Below, piece after piece: positions 25,899-31,852 of a stretch of 42,291 nt of DNA. Numbering within the stretch: position 1 is the first letter of the stretch; the number at the start of each line of letters is the position of its first letter. Where the stretch lies: NCBI RefSeq assembly GCF_003269065.1, contig NZ_QLTA01000043.1, positions 1 to 42,291 of the forward strand, given 5' to 3'. The position numbers were made by a program, and so were the translations under genes. The notes below the pieces were generated by a model, which worked only from the letters and a program-made list of their open reading frames with translations, was not told the DNA's origin and did not search any database. The DNA comes from Paracidovorax anthurii (lineage in GTDB: Bacteria; Pseudomonadota; Gammaproteobacteria; Burkholderiales; Burkholderiaceae_C).

Positions 25899-26873
25899 TC
25901 AGTGCCACAGCCGCTGCGCGAGCAACAGCATCAGCGGCACCGTGAGAAGCGCCATCGCCGTCGAAAGCGCGATGCTGGCCGACACCTCGTCCTGCATCGT
26001 GCCGTAGCGCTGGGTGAACAGGAACACGTTCGCCCCCACGGGCAGCGCCGCGGCCGTGAACATCACCGCCACCGACAGCCCCGACAACCCGAAGACCCAG
26101 GCCAGAGCGAACAGCAGCAGCGGGTGCGCGATGTTCTTCACCACCGCGATGCCCAGCGCCTCGCGCACGTGGTGCCCCACCTTGGTGTAGGCCAGCGTAA
26201 TGCCCACCAGCAGCAGCGCCATCGGCCCCAGGGCCGTGCCCAGCACCTGCAGCGGCTTGTCGATCACCTCCGGCAGCACCAGCCCCGTCTGCCCGAACAG
26301 CAGGCCCGCGAGGATCGGCAGCGGCACCGGGTGCACGATGCCGTTGCGCACCGCCTGCAGCACGGTGTGCAGCACCGGCCGCGGCGCGGTGCGGCCCGAC
26401 CGCTGGCTCTCGCGCGCCTCGGCCAGCTCGAACACGATGGTCGCGCCCGTGAGCAGCACCAGCGCATGCAGCGAGATCAGCGTGAAGAGCGTCACCAGCC
26501 CTTCCTTGCCATACACCAGCCCCACCAGCGGCACGCCGATCATGATGTTGTTGCTGAACATATTGGCCAGCCCGCGTGCCGCCGACCGCGTGGAAAAACC
26601 CGCGAAGGCCATGGTCACGCTGAACACCAGCCCCGCCGCGAGGAAGTACAGCGCCACCGGCTCGAAGTTCAGGTCCTGCACCCGCACCGCGCCCATCGTG
26701 CGGAACAGCAGCGCGGGCGTGAGGACGAGGAAGACGATGTTGGAGAGATCCTTGATCGCCGTGGCCCGCACCCAGCCGATGCGGGCGGTGAAAAAACCGA
26801 TGGCGATGCAGAGGATGACGGGGACGAGGGAGGCGAAGACGGGGGAGTTCACGGGGAGGGAGGCGTGCCCCAT
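25899..26873 (-). CDS. AEC-family (auxin efflux carrier-like) transporter
   Basis: This 324-residue inner-membrane protein has about ten hydrophobic helices in the AEC arrangement. FASLVPVILCIAIGFFTAR starts helix 1, FSNNIMIGVPLVGLVYG is the conserved Asn-containing broken helix, and ALGIAVVKNIAHPLLLFAL with ALPVGANVFLFTQRYG form the second repeat. Bacterial AEC permeases move malate, malonate or other organic acids; the substrate is not evident. It converges on pdxH (31 bases apart). A GTG at residue 8 is an alternative start. Confidence 0.9.
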   Translation of the reverse strand: MGHASLPVNSPVFASLVPVILCIAIGFFTARIGWVRATAIKDLSNIVFLVLTPALLFRTMGAVRVQDLNFEPVALYFLAAGLVFSVTMAFAGFSTRSAARGLANMFSNNIMIGVPLVGLVYGKEGLVTLFTLISLHALVLLTGATIVFELAEARESQRSGRTAPRPVLHTVLQAVRNGIVHPVPLPILAGLLFGQTGLVLPEVIDKPLQVLGTALGPMALLLVGITLAYTKVGHHVREALGIAVVKNIAHPLLLFALAWVFGLSGLSVAVMFTAAALPVGANVFLFTQRYGTMQDEVSASIALSTAMALLTVPLMLLLAQRLWH

Positions 26874-27054
26874 CCGGAGGGACAGCGGGGTCGATGGGGC
26901 GCAACGAGGACTGGGATGCAGGATTATCTGCCGCCAAGACTGGGCCGGAAGCCGCTTGGATTCCTACAGTTTCGTAGAGCCCGATCAAGGGCCGTTATGC
27001 AGGGCGGTCCCTTGCGTCAATGACTGGGCATCCGAATGGTCCAAGTTCAGGGCG

Positions 27055-27069
27055 GGATGCTTAGCATCC
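27055..27069. repeat. Small inverted repeat upstream of the nuclease-kinase island
   Basis: GGATGC-TTA-GCATCC is a perfect 6-bp inverted repeat about 87 bases before the first island gene, in a 282-base gap (26874-27155) that holds no gene. It could be an operator or a weak hairpin; no T-tract follows. TTGTTAAACTGTGTATC just downstream (about 27118) is AT-rich and may belong to a promoter, but I could not place convincing -35/-10 boxes. Confidence 0.4.
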
Positions 27070-27155
27070 GTATGCTGCCAACTATGGGGCGTAGAAAATG
27101 CCCAGCACCCTAACCCCTTGTTAAACTGTGTATCAAAGAGCCTTGGATAAGCGAT

Positions 27156-27671
27156 ATGGCCCACGCCATCACCCAACCGAACGATCGTAAAGAATTTGCC
27201 ACCGAAGCCGACTTTGTAGAGCGCTTTGTTGGTAAGTTGTCGGCAGGTCGTACCTCCTTCGGGCGGGTCCAGATTACTAAAGAGTGGGATCACACAGCAG
27301 GGTTCGTGGATGTTCTCGCACGACATCGGCGAAAGACGCTGCTGGCCTTCGAGGCCAAGCTGGATAACTGGAAAAGAGCATTTCATCAGGCGTACCGCAG
27401 CACCGCATACGCTAACAAATCGTATGTCATCGTCCCCGCACGTGTGGCCGAGAGAGCCTTGAGGGATCGAGACGAGTTCGAGTTACGAGGGGTGGGACTA
27501 TGTTCATTCGATGGGAAGTCCGTGCAGGTGCTAATCGAAGCGTCAGAGCAGGAGGCGCTTTTGGTTTGGCTCCGTGCACAAGCGCACGAACATTTCGATG
27601 CCCTCGACGATGAGCGGGCACTTGAATCTGGACGCGGCAGCTGCGGAGCTGTGCAACCAGCGCGGATTTGA
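27156..27671 (+). CDS. PD-(D/E)xK nuclease-like protein, first gene of a three-gene accessory module
   Basis: This 171-residue protein shows a compact PD-(D/E)xK pattern: E17 in an N-terminal helix, D52 in GFVDVLA, then FEAK with E66 and K68, and Q78 in FHQAYRS, matching the downstream Q/Y motif of RecB- and resolvase-like nucleases. A strand YVIVPARVAERAL and the GVGLCSFDG strand follow, as in the core fold. DNA or RNA cleavage is inferred from the fold pattern; I recognise no named family. Codon use is less GC-biased than in the flanking pdxH and TonB genes, suggesting transfer. The start ATG at 27156 is preceded by GGATAAG. Its end overlaps the kinase gene by about 62 bases. Confidence 0.65.
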   Translation: MAHAITQPNDRKEFATEADFVERFVGKLSAGRTSFGRVQITKEWDHTAGFVDVLARHRRKTLLAFEAKLDNWKRAFHQAYRSTAYANKSYVIVPARVAERALRDRDEFELRGVGLCSFDGKSVQVLIEASEQEALLVWLRAQAHEHFDALDDERALESGRGSCGAVQPARI

Positions 27672-28464
27672 GTTTCTAGGCCCTCTTGGGCAGGGCGCCT
27701 TCAAAAGTGCCTATCTGGCCGCCTACAACTCTCAGCAATTCGCACTGAAGCTTGCAGTTGCCGCCGGCGCTACGGAGCGGCTGGTTAGGGAAGCTCGAGC
27801 GCTTCAAGAGTGCTCGCACAACTCGGTAGCTCGGCTTCTTCAGGCCCACCCTCACATCACTCTGGAGGGGGGCGAGCTGTGGGTCGTCTGCGAAGAATAC
27901 CTGGCTGGAGGAACCCTGCAATCCCGGCGTACATGTGGTGTGCTGTCTGTCGCGGATACCCGGGCAATTGGTGTTGCGCTTGCCGAGGTTCTCGGTCATC
28001 TCCATGAGAAGCGACTCGTCCACCGCGACATTAAGCCTGAGAACATCATGTTCCGTGACCGCAGCAACGCCCACCCGGTGCTGACCGATTTTGGCATCGT
28101 ACGGATGCTCAATCAGCCTACCCTGACTCAGGCATTCGCCCAAATGGGGCCCGGCACCCCCGCATACGCGGCTCCAGAACAATTGACCAACGACAAGGCA
28201 CTGATTGACTGGCGCACCGACCAATTCGACCTCGCCATCGTGCTCGCTGAGTGCCTACTTGGGCATCACCCGTTCCTCGCATCGGGGAAGACCATCCCCG
28301 AGGCGATCATGGCAGTGGCTGCCCGCCACGAGATGCCCGCCGAAAACGCGGCGCGCCTTGCGGCCCTGGGGTTCGGAGCACTTCGGACGGCACTGAAACC
28401 CTGGCCCATCGCCCGCTTCAGAAATCCCTCTGACTTTCTAGAGTCGTTGAAGACATCTTCCTGA
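27610..28464 (+). CDS. Eukaryote-like Ser/Thr protein kinase, second gene of the accessory module
   Basis: This 284-residue soluble kinase is complete, with no membrane segment or sensor domain. It has the glycine-rich loop LGQGAFKSAYLA, ATP-binding K47 in FALKLAV, catalytic HRDIKPEN (H138-N145, D140 as base), DFG at D160-G162, APEQ and WRTDQFDLAIVL. All residues needed for catalysis are present, so it is probably active. I choose ATG 27610 (MSGHLNLDAA); GTG 27574 and ATG 27598 are in frame, and none has a clear ribosome site, so translation may be coupled to the nuclease gene it overlaps. The stop TGA at 28462-28464 overlaps the GAGGAAA ribosome site of the next gene. The partner substrate may be one of its neighbours. 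Confidence 0.85.
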   Translation: MSGHLNLDAAAAELCNQRGFEFLGPLGQGAFKSAYLAAYNSQQFALKLAVAAGATERLVREARALQECSHNSVARLLQAHPHITLEGGELWVVCEEYLAGGTLQSRRTCGVLSVADTRAIGVALAEVLGHLHEKRLVHRDIKPENIMFRDRSNAHPVLTDFGIVRMLNQPTLTQAFAQMGPGTPAYAAPEQLTNDKALIDWRTDQFDLAIVLAECLLGHHPFLASGKTIPEAIMAVAARHEMPAENAARLAALGFGALRTALKPWPIARFRNPSDFLESLKTSS

Positions 28465-28472
28465 GGAAACTT

Positions 28473-29618
28473 ATGGCTTCTTACTTGCAACTCGGTCACG
28501 ACTCTTGGAACCTTTTGGAAGAGCCGGACATTGGTGATTACGCAGGGCTAGTCCTCAGTCCGGTGAACGATGCGCCAGCTGACGTCGCAAACCGCTTAGG
28601 CCGGCTTGGTGATCTTCGTGACGAGTTGGAGGTGATCCTCGATCCGCAGATGTACAACCCCGCGTTCGAGAAGGGGAAGATGGACGAGTGGGCGTACTTC
28701 TCTTCCGAATACGAGACTGCGGACCGTGGAGACCTCAACTGGTGGGCTCAACGCGCCCACGAAATCGTCGAGCAAGGGGCGCAGCTAGGGGTGGATGCGG
28801 TTTGCTCGCCGGCCTTTGTTCCCCGACAGTTCACCGACGCCTACTACGCCTTCATTGTTGAGGTTGCTGATGCGATGAAGCACCATGCCGATGGACGACA
28901 GCAGGAGACGCTGCTCACCGCAATCGTTAGCCTCAGAGACCTGAACAACCCCTCCCGCGCTCTCAGCATCGCGTCTATTTTGTCCCGCAGCTCGTGTGAT
29001 CGCGTCTACTTGATGTTTCTAAACGAAGACGTTCCGGCACGGCAACCCATGAAGGACGCGGCAGGCTTGCCGACGGCTGTGCACCTAATTAGGCTGTTGT
29101 CCGAGGCGATGCGCATCCATGTCGCCTTCGCAAGCCACGACCTTGTGCTCTGGAAATTTGCCGGCGCTACTGACATCTCAACGGGCAAGTACATGAACCT
29201 CCGTCGCTTCTCTCCAGGTCGCTGGGGCGAGGAGGAGCCTGGCGGTCGCCAAGTGCCATATTGGAACGAAGGCCCTCTACTTGCGCGTTTGCGGGAAGCC
29301 GACGTCGCGAAGCTCAACCGCCAGGGCTGGTTCGATGATCGAACCTTTGAGTCAAATCCCGCAGGGGCTCGAATACTTGAAATCATCCGGAGCGGAGAGA
29401 AGGTTGCGTGGCTAAAGTTGTCTTGGATGCAGTACCTTCGCTGGGCCAGCAATATCGAATCGCTGTGGCATGGCGACGCAGCTGCGGTGGAGACTGGCCT
29501 GCGCGCAGCAGACCACAACTGGGGTTTGCTGTCGAACGTGTTGTTCCAGGATCGGTTCAACGACGGCTCCCATGTGCGGGGCTGGATCAACGCCATACGA
29601 GAGGGGCGTGGCCGTTAG
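28473..29618 (+). CDS. Unrecognised TIM-barrel-like protein, third gene of the accessory module
   Basis: I do not recognise this 381-residue protein. Its hydrophobic strands alternate with helices as in a beta/alpha barrel: GLVLSPVN, LEVILDPQMYNPAF, VDAVCSPAFVP, TAIVSLRDLNNPSRAL, DRVYLMFLNEDVP, then IHVAFASHDLVLWKFAGATD followed by STGKYMNLRRF. The LDPQ-Y start and the ASHD...GATDISTGK...NLRRF block recall tRNA-guanine-transglycosylase-like barrels, but this is a faint resemblance. A nucleic-acid base-modifying or nucleotide-binding role is speculation. It has no signal peptide or membrane helix. It starts nine bases after the kinase stop with GAGGAAA before ATG 28473, so it is in the same operon, and shares the lower-GC composition. 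Confidence 0.6.
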   Translation: MASYLQLGHDSWNLLEEPDIGDYAGLVLSPVNDAPADVANRLGRLGDLRDELEVILDPQMYNPAFEKGKMDEWAYFSSEYETADRGDLNWWAQRAHEIVEQGAQLGVDAVCSPAFVPRQFTDAYYAFIVEVADAMKHHADGRQQETLLTAIVSLRDLNNPSRALSIASILSRSSCDRVYLMFLNEDVPARQPMKDAAGLPTAVHLIRLLSEAMRIHVAFASHDLVLWKFAGATDISTGKYMNLRRFSPGRWGEEEPGGRQVPYWNEGPLLARLREADVAKLNRQGWFDDRTFESNPAGARILEIIRSGEKVAWLKLSWMQYLRWASNIESLWHGDAAAVETGLRAADHNWGLLSNVLFQDRFNDGSHVRGWINAIREGRGR

Positions 29619-29672
29619 CGAAGGACTGCTACCAGCCTAAAACAGCCCCTTAATACCGTCTCCCAGCGACCC

Positions 29673-29708
29673 AAAATGGGGCGTGCAGTTCCTCCCCAGC
29701 ACGCCCCA
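29673..29708 (-). terminator. Intrinsic terminator of the TonB-dependent receptor gene
   Basis: TGGGGCGTGC and GCACGCCCCA form a perfect 10-bp stem with a 12-base loop (29677-29708). On the minus strand TTTT follows directly (29676-29673). It begins five bases past the receptor stop codon. It also separates the convergent accessory module from the receptor gene. Confidence 0.85.
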
Positions 29709-29713
29709 CCCCC

Positions 29714-31852
29714 TCAAAACTCCACCTTCACCCCCACCTTCAAACTCCTCCCCGGCAACGGCGCCTTCGGGAACGCCGTGGTCGTCAGGATCGAAGTCGC
29801 GCTGTACGCCAGCTTGTCCGTGATGTTGTCCAGCCGCGCGTACCACAGCACATTGCTCCGGTTGGCCCCGAACTGCCACTGGGTGCGATACCCCAGCGAT
29901 GCATTCCACAGCGTGTAGGCGCCCGTGGCGCGGGTGCCGTCGGCGGGCACGCGGTTTTGCGCGGCGAGATAGTCGAAGCCCAGCCCGGCGCGCCAGGGGC
30001 CGCTGGCCCACAGCAAGGTGCTGCCCAGGCGCAGCGGGGCGATGCGCGGCAGGGGCTCGCCCGTGTCGCGGTTGGTGGCGCGCACGATGTCGCCGCGCAG
30101 TTGCAGGTCCACCGTGGAGCCATCACCCAGTACGCGGGACGATGGCGCCACGAGGCCGCTCTCGCCCACTAGGCGCACGTTGCCGCTGGCTTCCAGGCCG
30201 TAGAACCGGGCGCGCATGCCCTGGTAGCGGTATTCGGGCAGTGCGCCGTCGGTGCCGGCGGGCACGGTGTCGCCCTCTTCCGATCGCAGCAGGCCGGTGG
30301 GCGTGAGGCCGATGTAGTTGGAGAACTGGCTCACAAAGGCGGTGGCGGCGAAGCGGTGCGGGCCGCTTTTCCAGGCGGCGCCCACATCCAGGCTGGTGGA
30401 TTTTTCCAGGCCCAGGTTGGGGTTGCCCGTCTCCCAGGCGCCGGTGGCCACGTGCGGGCCGTTGGCGAAGAGTTCGTAGTCCTTGGGCGCGCGCTGGGTG
30501 TAGGAGAGGTTGGAGGTCAGCTGCCACGCGGGCGTGAGGTTGACGAGCGCGCCCAGGGCGGCGCTGTAGGGGTTGAAGTCGTGCTTGCCGATGGCGAAGC
30601 GGTCGATGCCGGGGCTGCCGAAGGATTCGACCGTGTCGTGCTCGGTGCGGGCGCCGAAGGTGAGCTTGCCCCAGTCGGTGCCCAGCTCTTCGTGCACGAA
30701 GAGCGCGGTGCTGGCGCTGCGGCTGCGCGGGGCGAAGGCTTCATTGCCCTCGGCGGAGAAGCGCGAAACCTCGGTCTGCAGGCCGACCACGCCCTGCAGT
30801 TTGCCGATGGGCGCGTGCCGCGCTTCCAGCCGCAGGTCGTTGCCGCCGTTGCGGAAGGTGGTGCCGGGCGTGCTGCCTTCGTATTCGGTGTGGCGGTAGT
30901 CGGTGTGGCTGGCCTGCACGCGCACGCTCTGCAGCGGGCCGGTGTCGAAGCGCCACAGGCCGTCCAGCGCATAGCGGTTGGAGCGCATGCCGATGGTCAC
31001 GTCGTCCTCGGCGACGGTGCCGTAGTTGCTGCGGTAAGTGCTGGCCGAGACGCCCAGGTAACCCCGGTCGAAGAACGCCGTGCCACCCAGTGCGCCGCCG
31101 CGCGTGTGGCTGGCCGAGTTGCAGATGCGCCGCGCGAGGCTCGGCGAGCCGGGTTTCTCGCAGGCCAGGTCGATAGGCACGCGCACGTCGTCGGTGTTGC
31201 GGTCGAACACGTCGGCATGCAGGGCGAAGCGGTCGTTGCCGCCCTCCACCATCGCGGCGCCCGCGCGTTCGCGGTTGCCGGTGGCGGCCGAGGCCTCGGC
31301 CTTGCCGTCCACGCCGTTGAGTGGCTCGCGCGGGATGCGGTTGTCGATCACGTTGACCACGCCGCCCACGGCGCTGCCGCCGTAGAGCAGTGCGGCCGGG
31401 CCGCGCAGCACTTCGATGCGCTCGGTGGTCAGCGCCTCGGTGGGCACGGCATGGTCGAAGCTCAGGGCGGATGCGTCCAGCGTGGCGCCGCTGTTCTGCA
31501 GCACGCGGATGCGGTCGCCGTCCAGCCCGCGGATGATGGGCCGGCTGGCGTTGGGGCCGAAATAGGTGCTGCTGACGCCGGGCAGGCCGTCCAGGGTCTG
31601 GCCCAGCGTGGACTCGGTGCGCAGCGTGAGGTCGTCGCCGGACAGCTGCGTGGCAGGGGCGACCACCGTGTCCGCACCCAGCGGGTTGCCGGTGACGGTC
31701 ACTTCGGGCAGGCGGGTTTTCTGGCCGGAGGGGTCGCCCTCGGTCGTCTGCGCGCGTGCGCCGGACGCCAGCAGCATCAGCACGGCACAGGCGAGCGGGT
31801 GCAGCGCGGTATGGCGTGAGCGGCGTGGAGGGGATGAAAGGTGGGAGTTCAT
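29714..31852 (-). CDS. TonB-dependent outer-membrane receptor, probably for zinc or another metal
   Basis: This 712-residue outer-membrane protein has a signal peptide ending in SGARAQ and a plug domain: LPEVTVTGNPLG, DGLPGVSSTYFGPNASRP then IIRGLDGDRIRVLQNS, and RIEVLRGPAALLYGGSAVGG. A beta barrel follows, ending in the aromatic signature LKVGVKVEF. A Cys-bearing loop (DLACEKPGSPSLARRICNSAS) and several His-containing loops are seen, as in ZnuD-type zinc receptors. It is the last gene of a run headed by a Fur/Zur-family regulator, but a terminator (32045-32088) separates it from that run, so it may have its own promoter within 31853-32044, where I found no copy of the palindrome at 36097. 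Metal specificity is inferred from context. Confidence 0.85.
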   Translation of the reverse strand: MNSHLSSPPRRSRHTALHPLACAVLMLLASGARAQTTEGDPSGQKTRLPEVTVTGNPLGADTVVAPATQLSGDDLTLRTESTLGQTLDGLPGVSSTYFGPNASRPIIRGLDGDRIRVLQNSGATLDASALSFDHAVPTEALTTERIEVLRGPAALLYGGSAVGGVVNVIDNRIPREPLNGVDGKAEASAATGNRERAGAAMVEGGNDRFALHADVFDRNTDDVRVPIDLACEKPGSPSLARRICNSASHTRGGALGGTAFFDRGYLGVSASTYRSNYGTVAEDDVTIGMRSNRYALDGLWRFDTGPLQSVRVQASHTDYRHTEYEGSTPGTTFRNGGNDLRLEARHAPIGKLQGVVGLQTEVSRFSAEGNEAFAPRSRSASTALFVHEELGTDWGKLTFGARTEHDTVESFGSPGIDRFAIGKHDFNPYSAALGALVNLTPAWQLTSNLSYTQRAPKDYELFANGPHVATGAWETGNPNLGLEKSTSLDVGAAWKSGPHRFAATAFVSQFSNYIGLTPTGLLRSEEGDTVPAGTDGALPEYRYQGMRARFYGLEASGNVRLVGESGLVAPSSRVLGDGSTVDLQLRGDIVRATNRDTGEPLPRIAPLRLGSTLLWASGPWRAGLGFDYLAAQNRVPADGTRATGAYTLWNASLGYRTQWQFGANRSNVLWYARLDNITDKLAYSATSILTTTAFPKAPLPGRSLKVGVKVEF

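What the first reader, a model, noticed from the sequence alone, without database searches (positions are those of the whole stretch)
27156..29618. Three-gene lower-GC module: PD-(D/E)xK nuclease-like, complete Ser/Thr kinase, unknown TIM-barrel-like protein
Seen: three genes packed head to tail with overlap and nine-base spacing, visibly less GC-biased than the neighbouring pdxH, AEC and TonB genes, and closed by a terminator shared with the convergent receptor gene. The nuclease-like gene carries D52/E66/K68/Q78; the kinase keeps VAIK-type K47, D140 and D160. Known: kinases and restriction-like nucleases occur in bacterial defence systems (for example PglW in BREX, Stk2-type kinases). Inference: the kinase senses or gates, the nuclease acts, and the barrel protein may bind or modify a nucleic acid or nucleotide. 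I know of no described system with these three parts.
Basis: partly seen in the sequence, partly recalled or inferred. Interest (0 to 1): 0.85.

Follow-up and report, generated by a model that had tools for sequence, protein, structure and literature searches.

The report
Mobile nuclease–kinase–TGT-fold gene trio
Three neighbouring genes (a DNA-cutting-type enzyme, a protein kinase and a protein shaped like a tRNA base-swapping enzyme but lacking its key catalytic residues) travel together between distant bacteria and an archaeon on phages, transposons and plasmids, and look like an undescribed, probably antiviral, kinase-controlled unit.

The parts
27156..27671 (+). PD-(D/E)xK-type nuclease, 171 aa (E17, E43, D52, E66-x-K68, Q78)
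   Evidence: ORF; E66, K68, Q78 in 34 of 34 and D52 in 33 of 34 trios; model of the homologue L015
27610..28464 (+). Hanks-type Ser/Thr kinase, 284 aa from ATG 27610 (longest ORF from GTG 27574)
   Evidence: Pkinase E 4.6e-30; K47, E61, HRD138-140, K142, N145, D160-x-G162 in 34 of 34 trios
28473..29618 (+). TGT-fold (beta/alpha)8 protein, 381 aa, invariant Q6, G8, S29-P30, D57-P-Q, Y61, P63, P113, Y179, G238, N242-x-R244-x-F246
29677..29708 (-). hairpin between the barrel gene and the convergent TonB receptor gene, probably the TonB gene's terminator
   Evidence: fold; T residues follow only on the minus strand
26854..29724 (.). stretch between the AEC and TonB homology blocks that is replaced by 131 bp in relative G779
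   Evidence: blastn blocks

Best explanation
A horizontally mobile three-component module of the defence type. Shown: the three genes are kept together across phyla, co-diverge, are found on prophage contigs, transposons and plasmids, and keep the catalytic residues of a nuclease and a kinase; the third protein's model has the TGT fold, without a conserved TGT nucleophile or zinc site. Inferred: the TGT-fold protein uses its barrel pocket (invariant D57-P-Q, placed by strand order where TGT has a catalytic Asp) and the N242-x-R244 loop after strand 8 to recognise a nucleic-acid or nucleobase signal of infection; the kinase passes this on by phosphorylating the nuclease and/or the TGT-fold protein; the nuclease, guided in most lineages by an inserted winged helix, then cuts phage or host DNA, so that the invader is restricted or the infected cell stops. 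In six loci a calcineurin-like phosphatase would reset the switch.
For: Linkage in 38 of 40 contigs, the other two cut by contig ends. Two layouts, nuclease in the operon (23 contigs) or convergent behind it (15 contigs). Distance correlations 0.947, 0.920, 0.874. Carriers: five IMG/VR contigs, two of them checked to have the trio near head or tail genes, Tn7-like genes at three loci, integrases at three, a relaxase and a TraG-like gene at one each, two plasmids. DNA methyltransferase genes near L016, L026 and L142. Phosphatase next to the trio in 5 of 36 loci and in L142. Near-empty site in G779 and G775; patchy occurrence. Kinase closest in PADLOC to PD-T4-6 and MAD6. TGT fold. Precedents: nuclease plus kinase in PglW and DndF, TGT homologues in Dpd and BRC loci (passages of PMC12839542).
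Against: No phage assay exists. The window copy lies between ordinary genes with no mobile element or defence gene recognised beside it. Most copies found have no mobile sign that I tested, because only selected neighbours were tested. The barrel and nuclease match no PADLOC model. Foldseek on viral models ranks other TIM barrels above TGT, and no profile link to TGT was found. Substrate, trigger and phosphorylation targets are unknown.
Confidence: 0.5

Rival explanations
1. Restriction-modification-like: the TGT-fold protein is an active enzyme that exchanges or removes a base (as DpdA does in DNA), marking self; the nuclease cuts DNA without the mark and the kinase controls timing.
For: TGT fold over 312 residues; an invariant Asp at the end of strand 3; TGT homologues work in Dpd systems (PMC12839542 passages).
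Against: No conserved acid in columns 233-239 at the end of strand 8 and no conserved cysteine column. I saw no 7-deazaguanine synthesis or DpdB/DpdC-like genes among the neighbours, but only a few were searched by profile.
Confidence: 0.13
2. Addiction (toxin-antitoxin-like) module of mobile elements: the nuclease is a toxin held in check by phosphorylation or by the partner proteins, as VapKSC does with a PIN nuclease.
For: Overlapping compact genes, mobile carriers, and a three-gene kinase-nuclease precedent, VapKSC (PMC13373217).
Against: Three enzyme-sized proteins with a kinase intact in 34 of 34 and phosphatases added in six loci look more like a signal relay than an antitoxin.
Confidence: 0.13
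3. tRNA-directed stop: the TGT-fold protein delivers or senses tRNA, and the nuclease or kinase acts on tRNA or translation instead of DNA.
For: Closest solved folds are tRNA-guanine transglycosylases, including the eukaryotic tRNA-bound enzyme 7nq4; the conserved N-x-R-x-F lies where TGT has its PTR motif (recalled).
Against: The nuclease is of a fold that mostly cuts DNA (recalled) and 24 of 33 aligned copies carry an inserted winged helix like those of transcription regulators.
Confidence: 0.12
4. Element housekeeping: a regulator or DNA-processing unit that serves the carrier (prophage, Tn7-like or conjugative element) and not defence.
For: Winged helix inserted in most of the nucleases; found in many elements.
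Against: The carriers are unrelated to each other (phage contigs, Tn7-like, relaxase-bearing, plasmids), and the window copy has no visible carrier; this fits cargo better than a part of one element's machinery. The window's clade lacks the winged helix.
Confidence: 0.08

Closest known systems
PglW of type 2 BREX and DndF (NERD-type nuclease fused to Ser/Thr/Tyr kinase modules)
   Same: Nuclease of the restriction fold combined with a Hanks-type kinase; kinase matches the PglW model at E 3.9e-23; architecture as described in PMC12839542 passages
   Different: Here nuclease and kinase are separate small proteins, there is a TGT-fold partner, and no PglZ, BrxC or PglX set was recognised beside the window trio
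tRNA-guanine transglycosylase and DpdA
   Different: No sequence-profile match, no conserved acid at the end of strand 8, no conserved cysteines
BRC systems with TGT and GNAT (PMC12839542, passages)
   Same: A TGT homologue inside a defence locus
   Different: BRC is built on HerA/FtsK, PglZ and a BrxC-like ATPase; none of these is part of the trio
VapKSC (PMC13373217, abstract and passages)
   Same: Three genes, a kinase controlling a nuclease, associated with defence genes
   Different: GHKL kinase, STAS-domain substrate and PIN nuclease; none homologous here
PD-T4-6 and MAD6 kinases
   Same: Closest PADLOC models for the kinase, E 3.6e-35 and 4.6e-35
   Different: PD-T4-6 acts as a single gene (recalled); MAD6 is part of a larger methylation-associated system; below NCBIfam's MAD6 cut-off (90 against 460 bits)

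Membership tests
PD-(D/E)xK nuclease superfamily | Asp, then Glu-x-Lys on the next core strand, with helical Gln | tested here: met
   D52 33/34, E66 34/34, K68 34/34, Q78 34/34
PD-(D/E)xK nuclease superfamily | alpha/beta restriction-endonuclease core fold | tested here: inconclusive
Hanks-type protein kinase | Pkinase profile and catalytic Lys, Glu, HRD, Asn, Asp-x-Gly | tested here: met
   Pkinase 105 bits against cut-off 31.7; invariant in 34 of 34
TGT (PF01702) | (beta/alpha)8 TGT fold | tested here: met
TGT (PF01702) | Sequence-profile match | tested here: not met
   No PF01702 match at E 1 in 35 members; hhalign probability 0.1%
TGT (PF01702) | Nucleophile Asp at the end of strand 8 | tested here: not met
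   Columns 233-239 have no conserved acid in 34 sequences; commonest D is 8 of 34 at 234; position assigned by strand order, not by residue-level superposition
TGT (PF01702) | Zinc site of three Cys and one His | tested here: not met
   Only one column has Cys in 40% or more (14 of 34, column 182); the window protein has 2 Cys
Dpd system | DpdA with DpdB, DpdC and preQ0 synthesis genes | not tested
   No PADLOC model matched the barrel or nuclease, but the neighbours were not all searched
BREX type 2 / PglW | Fused nuclease-kinase PglW with BrxC, PglX, PglZ | tested here: not met
   Kinase 79 bits against NCBIfam PglW cut-off 990; separate 284-aa protein
Anti-phage defence system | Protection against phage that depends on the genes | not testable with these tools
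   Needs plating assays; only genomic context is available

The most novel reading that the evidence does not exclude
A new class of immune system in which a catalytically disarmed TGT reads the guanine state of nucleic acid (7-deazaguanine-modified phage DNA, or the anticodon base of tRNA) and switches on a nuclease through a reversible kinase/phosphatase relay. It would be a sensor built from a TGT and a counter to phages that hide behind deazaguanine DNA.
Probability: 0.18. Interest if true: 0.92.

Novelty: new variant of a known kind. Interest (0 to 1): 0.75.

Why it matters
Nuclease-kinase proteins such as PglW are part of known defence systems, but how they are triggered and what they phosphorylate is open. 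Here the same logic appears as three small separate proteins (about 170, 285 and 380 residues in the window) with a candidate sensor, so trigger, phosphorylation target and effector can each be tested. The module occurs in bacteria and in an archaeon, and its third protein belongs to a sequence family without a convincing match in Pfam, PHROGs, PADLOC or PDB sequences. If the TGT-fold protein reads modified guanine or tRNA, it would show how a base-modification enzyme becomes an immune sensor.

Tried and rejected
TGT by profile: the first hhalign run used some wrongly stranded TGT rows and was redone, with 0.1% probability. The redone TGT set is still imperfect: one of 30 rows read with stops, and of the 29 clean rows 23 carry TDSGG[FY]Q and 18 FDCVxPTR, so a few may still be on the wrong strand. 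The negative profile result is therefore weak.

PDB by sequence: two chance-level hits for the barrel (E 0.42 and 0.55); for the nuclease, 19 hits up to E 10, nearly all transcription-regulator HTH proteins. Pfam on 35 barrels: seven families, each in one member, best E 0.00048 (GATase_3), taken as noise. PHROGs: one unnamed family in 3 of 35 members at best E 0.0061. PADLOC: five models, one member each, best E 0.0037. Phage records: none with the barrel of the window. E. coli: no DNA match to the Silvania trio in 5,426 genomes; this is a DNA search only. Nuclease elsewhere: 6 of 299 genomes match, the window genome and five weak ones; I read two (G450, G558), which hold a different winged-helix nuclease with no kinase or barrel in the 2-3 kb held; the other three were not read. 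Two haloarchaeal plasmids have a related nuclease without kinase or barrel in the stretch fetched. tRNA and sigma-70 promoter scans of the window gave no hit, and the repeats found were short two-copy matches. Families hidden in the VIA list of the nuclease cannot be excluded. L034 and L048 were not counted as losses of the nuclease because their contigs end. Six further relatives had AEC homologues but no adjacent TonB gene that I could read, so they say nothing on the site.

Papers: nine searches of the open PMC library listed no description of this trio; most subscription journals are not held and no bioRxiv library is. Seen: passages of PMC13092281, abstract, outline and passages of PMC13373217, passages of PMC12839542; all other papers as search listings.

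Full report
What is there. Three genes lie head to tail at 27156-29618 on the plus strand: a 171-aa PD-(D/E)xK-type nuclease, a Hanks-type kinase (284 aa from ATG 27610; the longest ORF starts at GTG 27574) and a 381-aa protein. Nuclease and kinase genes overlap by 62 bp and 8 bp separate the kinase and barrel genes. GC falls to 0.57-0.60 from about 0.70. GC3 is 0.585-0.682 against 0.886-0.957 in pdxH, AEC and TonB.

How it got there. In two family relatives the AEC and TonB genes lie side by side: 131 bp between homology blocks in G779 and 108 bp between ORFs in G775, against 2,871 bp in the window. In three others (G765, G777, G771) about 1.9, 2.1 and 3.4 kb of other sequence lies between the two genes (positions), so the junction is not empty everywhere. 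Of 399 genomes of the order, 4 carry a barrel gene, the window genome included, one of them a distant form; the two same-genus genomes in that draw do not. Of 398 genomes of the phylum only the window genome matched a 5-row profile; the draws overlap. This looks like patchy, acquired DNA.

The trio is a real unit. With a profile of eight barrels I found 31 loci in the collection of 84,980 species genomes by a single peptide pattern, which is a lower bound. With duplicates removed (L010 and L036, L012 and L041 are the same contigs; L049 and L050 repeat L017 and L015) there are 40 contigs including the window. HMMs for the three proteins were run on 40 loci that represent 38 of these contigs: 36 of 38 carry kinase, barrel and nuclease side by side. 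L017, read from its ORFs, and the archaeal plasmid L142 make it 38 of 40. L034 and L048 have kinase plus barrel and their contigs end close by. The HMMs were trained on eight of these loci, so for those the match is by construction. Several contigs are near-copies; 34 different trios were used for the counts below. In 23 contigs the order is nuclease, kinase, barrel on one strand; in 15 the nuclease is convergent behind the barrel. In the barrel tree the 12 convergent rows are one side of one branch (support 100/99; long branches make the deep order unsure), so adjacency survived a rearrangement. Pairwise distances correlate: barrel-kinase 0.947, kinase-nuclease 0.920, barrel-nuclease 0.874, Mantel p 0.001 each. 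This shows shared descent of the three; it is not a test of interaction.

Hosts and carriers. By record titles, which for MAGs are the submitters' assignments, the full trio occurs in Pseudomonadota, Planctomycetota, Actinomycetota, Thermodesulfobacteriota, Myxococcota, Armatimonadota, Elusimicrobiota and the haloarchaeon Natribaculum breve; a Bacillota MAG has kinase and barrel on a short contig. Carriers with evidence: five IMG/VR contigs (L014-L017, L051), with the trio 128 bp behind a head-morphogenesis gene in L014 and downstream of a tape-measure gene in L015; Tn7-like genes at L036, L038 and L039 (TniB, TnsD/TniQ, a transposase with rve and Mu-transpos_C domains that clusters across the three); integrases at L020, L021 and L026, a MobA/MobL relaxase at L041 and a TraG-like protein at L027; plasmids L013 and L142. 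Only selected neighbours were tested, so these are minimum counts. DNA methyltransferase genes lie near L016, L026 and L142 and an HNH nuclease near L045. The window copy has no such neighbour that I recognised.

A fourth part. In 5 of 36 loci scanned, which form one branch of the barrel tree (Aeromonas, Vibrio, Silvania and an IMG/VR contig), a calcineurin-like phosphatase gene sits directly behind the nuclease gene (two of the five checked in Pfam). The archaeal trio is followed by a phosphatase whose best Pfam family is another one of the same superfamily (PF12850). Separate recruitment of a phosphatase beside the kinase suggests that phosphorylation is a reversible switch; this is inference, without a tree of the phosphatases.

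Mechanism. Most likely (0.5): the TGT-fold protein senses a nucleic-acid or base signal, the kinase gates, the nuclease acts on DNA, and the result is phage restriction or abortive infection. Shown: linkage, mobility, intact catalytic residues, fold. Inferred: sensing, phosphorylation targets, substrate, and defence itself. Rivals are a modification-based restriction system, an addiction module, a tRNA-directed stop, and service to the carrier element.

What is known. PglW and DndF join a restriction-type nuclease to kinases, and TGT homologues occur in Dpd and BRC defence loci (passages of PMC12839542). VapKSC is a three-gene kinase-controlled nuclease (PMC13373217). Metallophosphatases and a HipA-type kinase are among recently validated defence domains (passages of PMC13092281). 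None of these has the three parts seen here. Nine searches of the open PMC library listed no description of the trio.

Noticed in passing
L035:11815-12579, L037:11815-12579, L038:11899-12663, L045:11873-12640, L051:11889-12647; L142:7204-7893: Calcineurin-like phosphatase genes directly beside the trio in one gammaproteobacterial branch and, from another Pfam family, beside the archaeal trio.
   Followed up: partly
L015:11112-11735 and L030:8190-8840: A fourth gene of about 210 aa, no Pfam match, flanks the trio in two very distant lineages; possibly an accessory component.
   Followed up: partly
L041:8522-8938, L042:8523-8993, L048:3235-3615, L030:13627-13899: Small H-NS-like genes near the trio (one BLAST cluster; H-NS domain confirmed for L041 only).
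   Followed up: partly
L031:2316-3467: The barrel gene of the Rhizobacter MAG is split into two ORFs in different frames; the other two genes look intact.
   Followed up: no
L146:991-1767, L147:43-825; L143:4872-5279, L144:4413-5357: Related ExK nucleases, two with what looks like an N-terminal winged helix and two haloarchaeal, without kinase or barrel in the stretch held.
   Followed up: partly
L013:9390-10538: The gene after the trio on the Polaromonas plasmid has a C-terminal part that looks by eye like another ExK nuclease.
   Followed up: no
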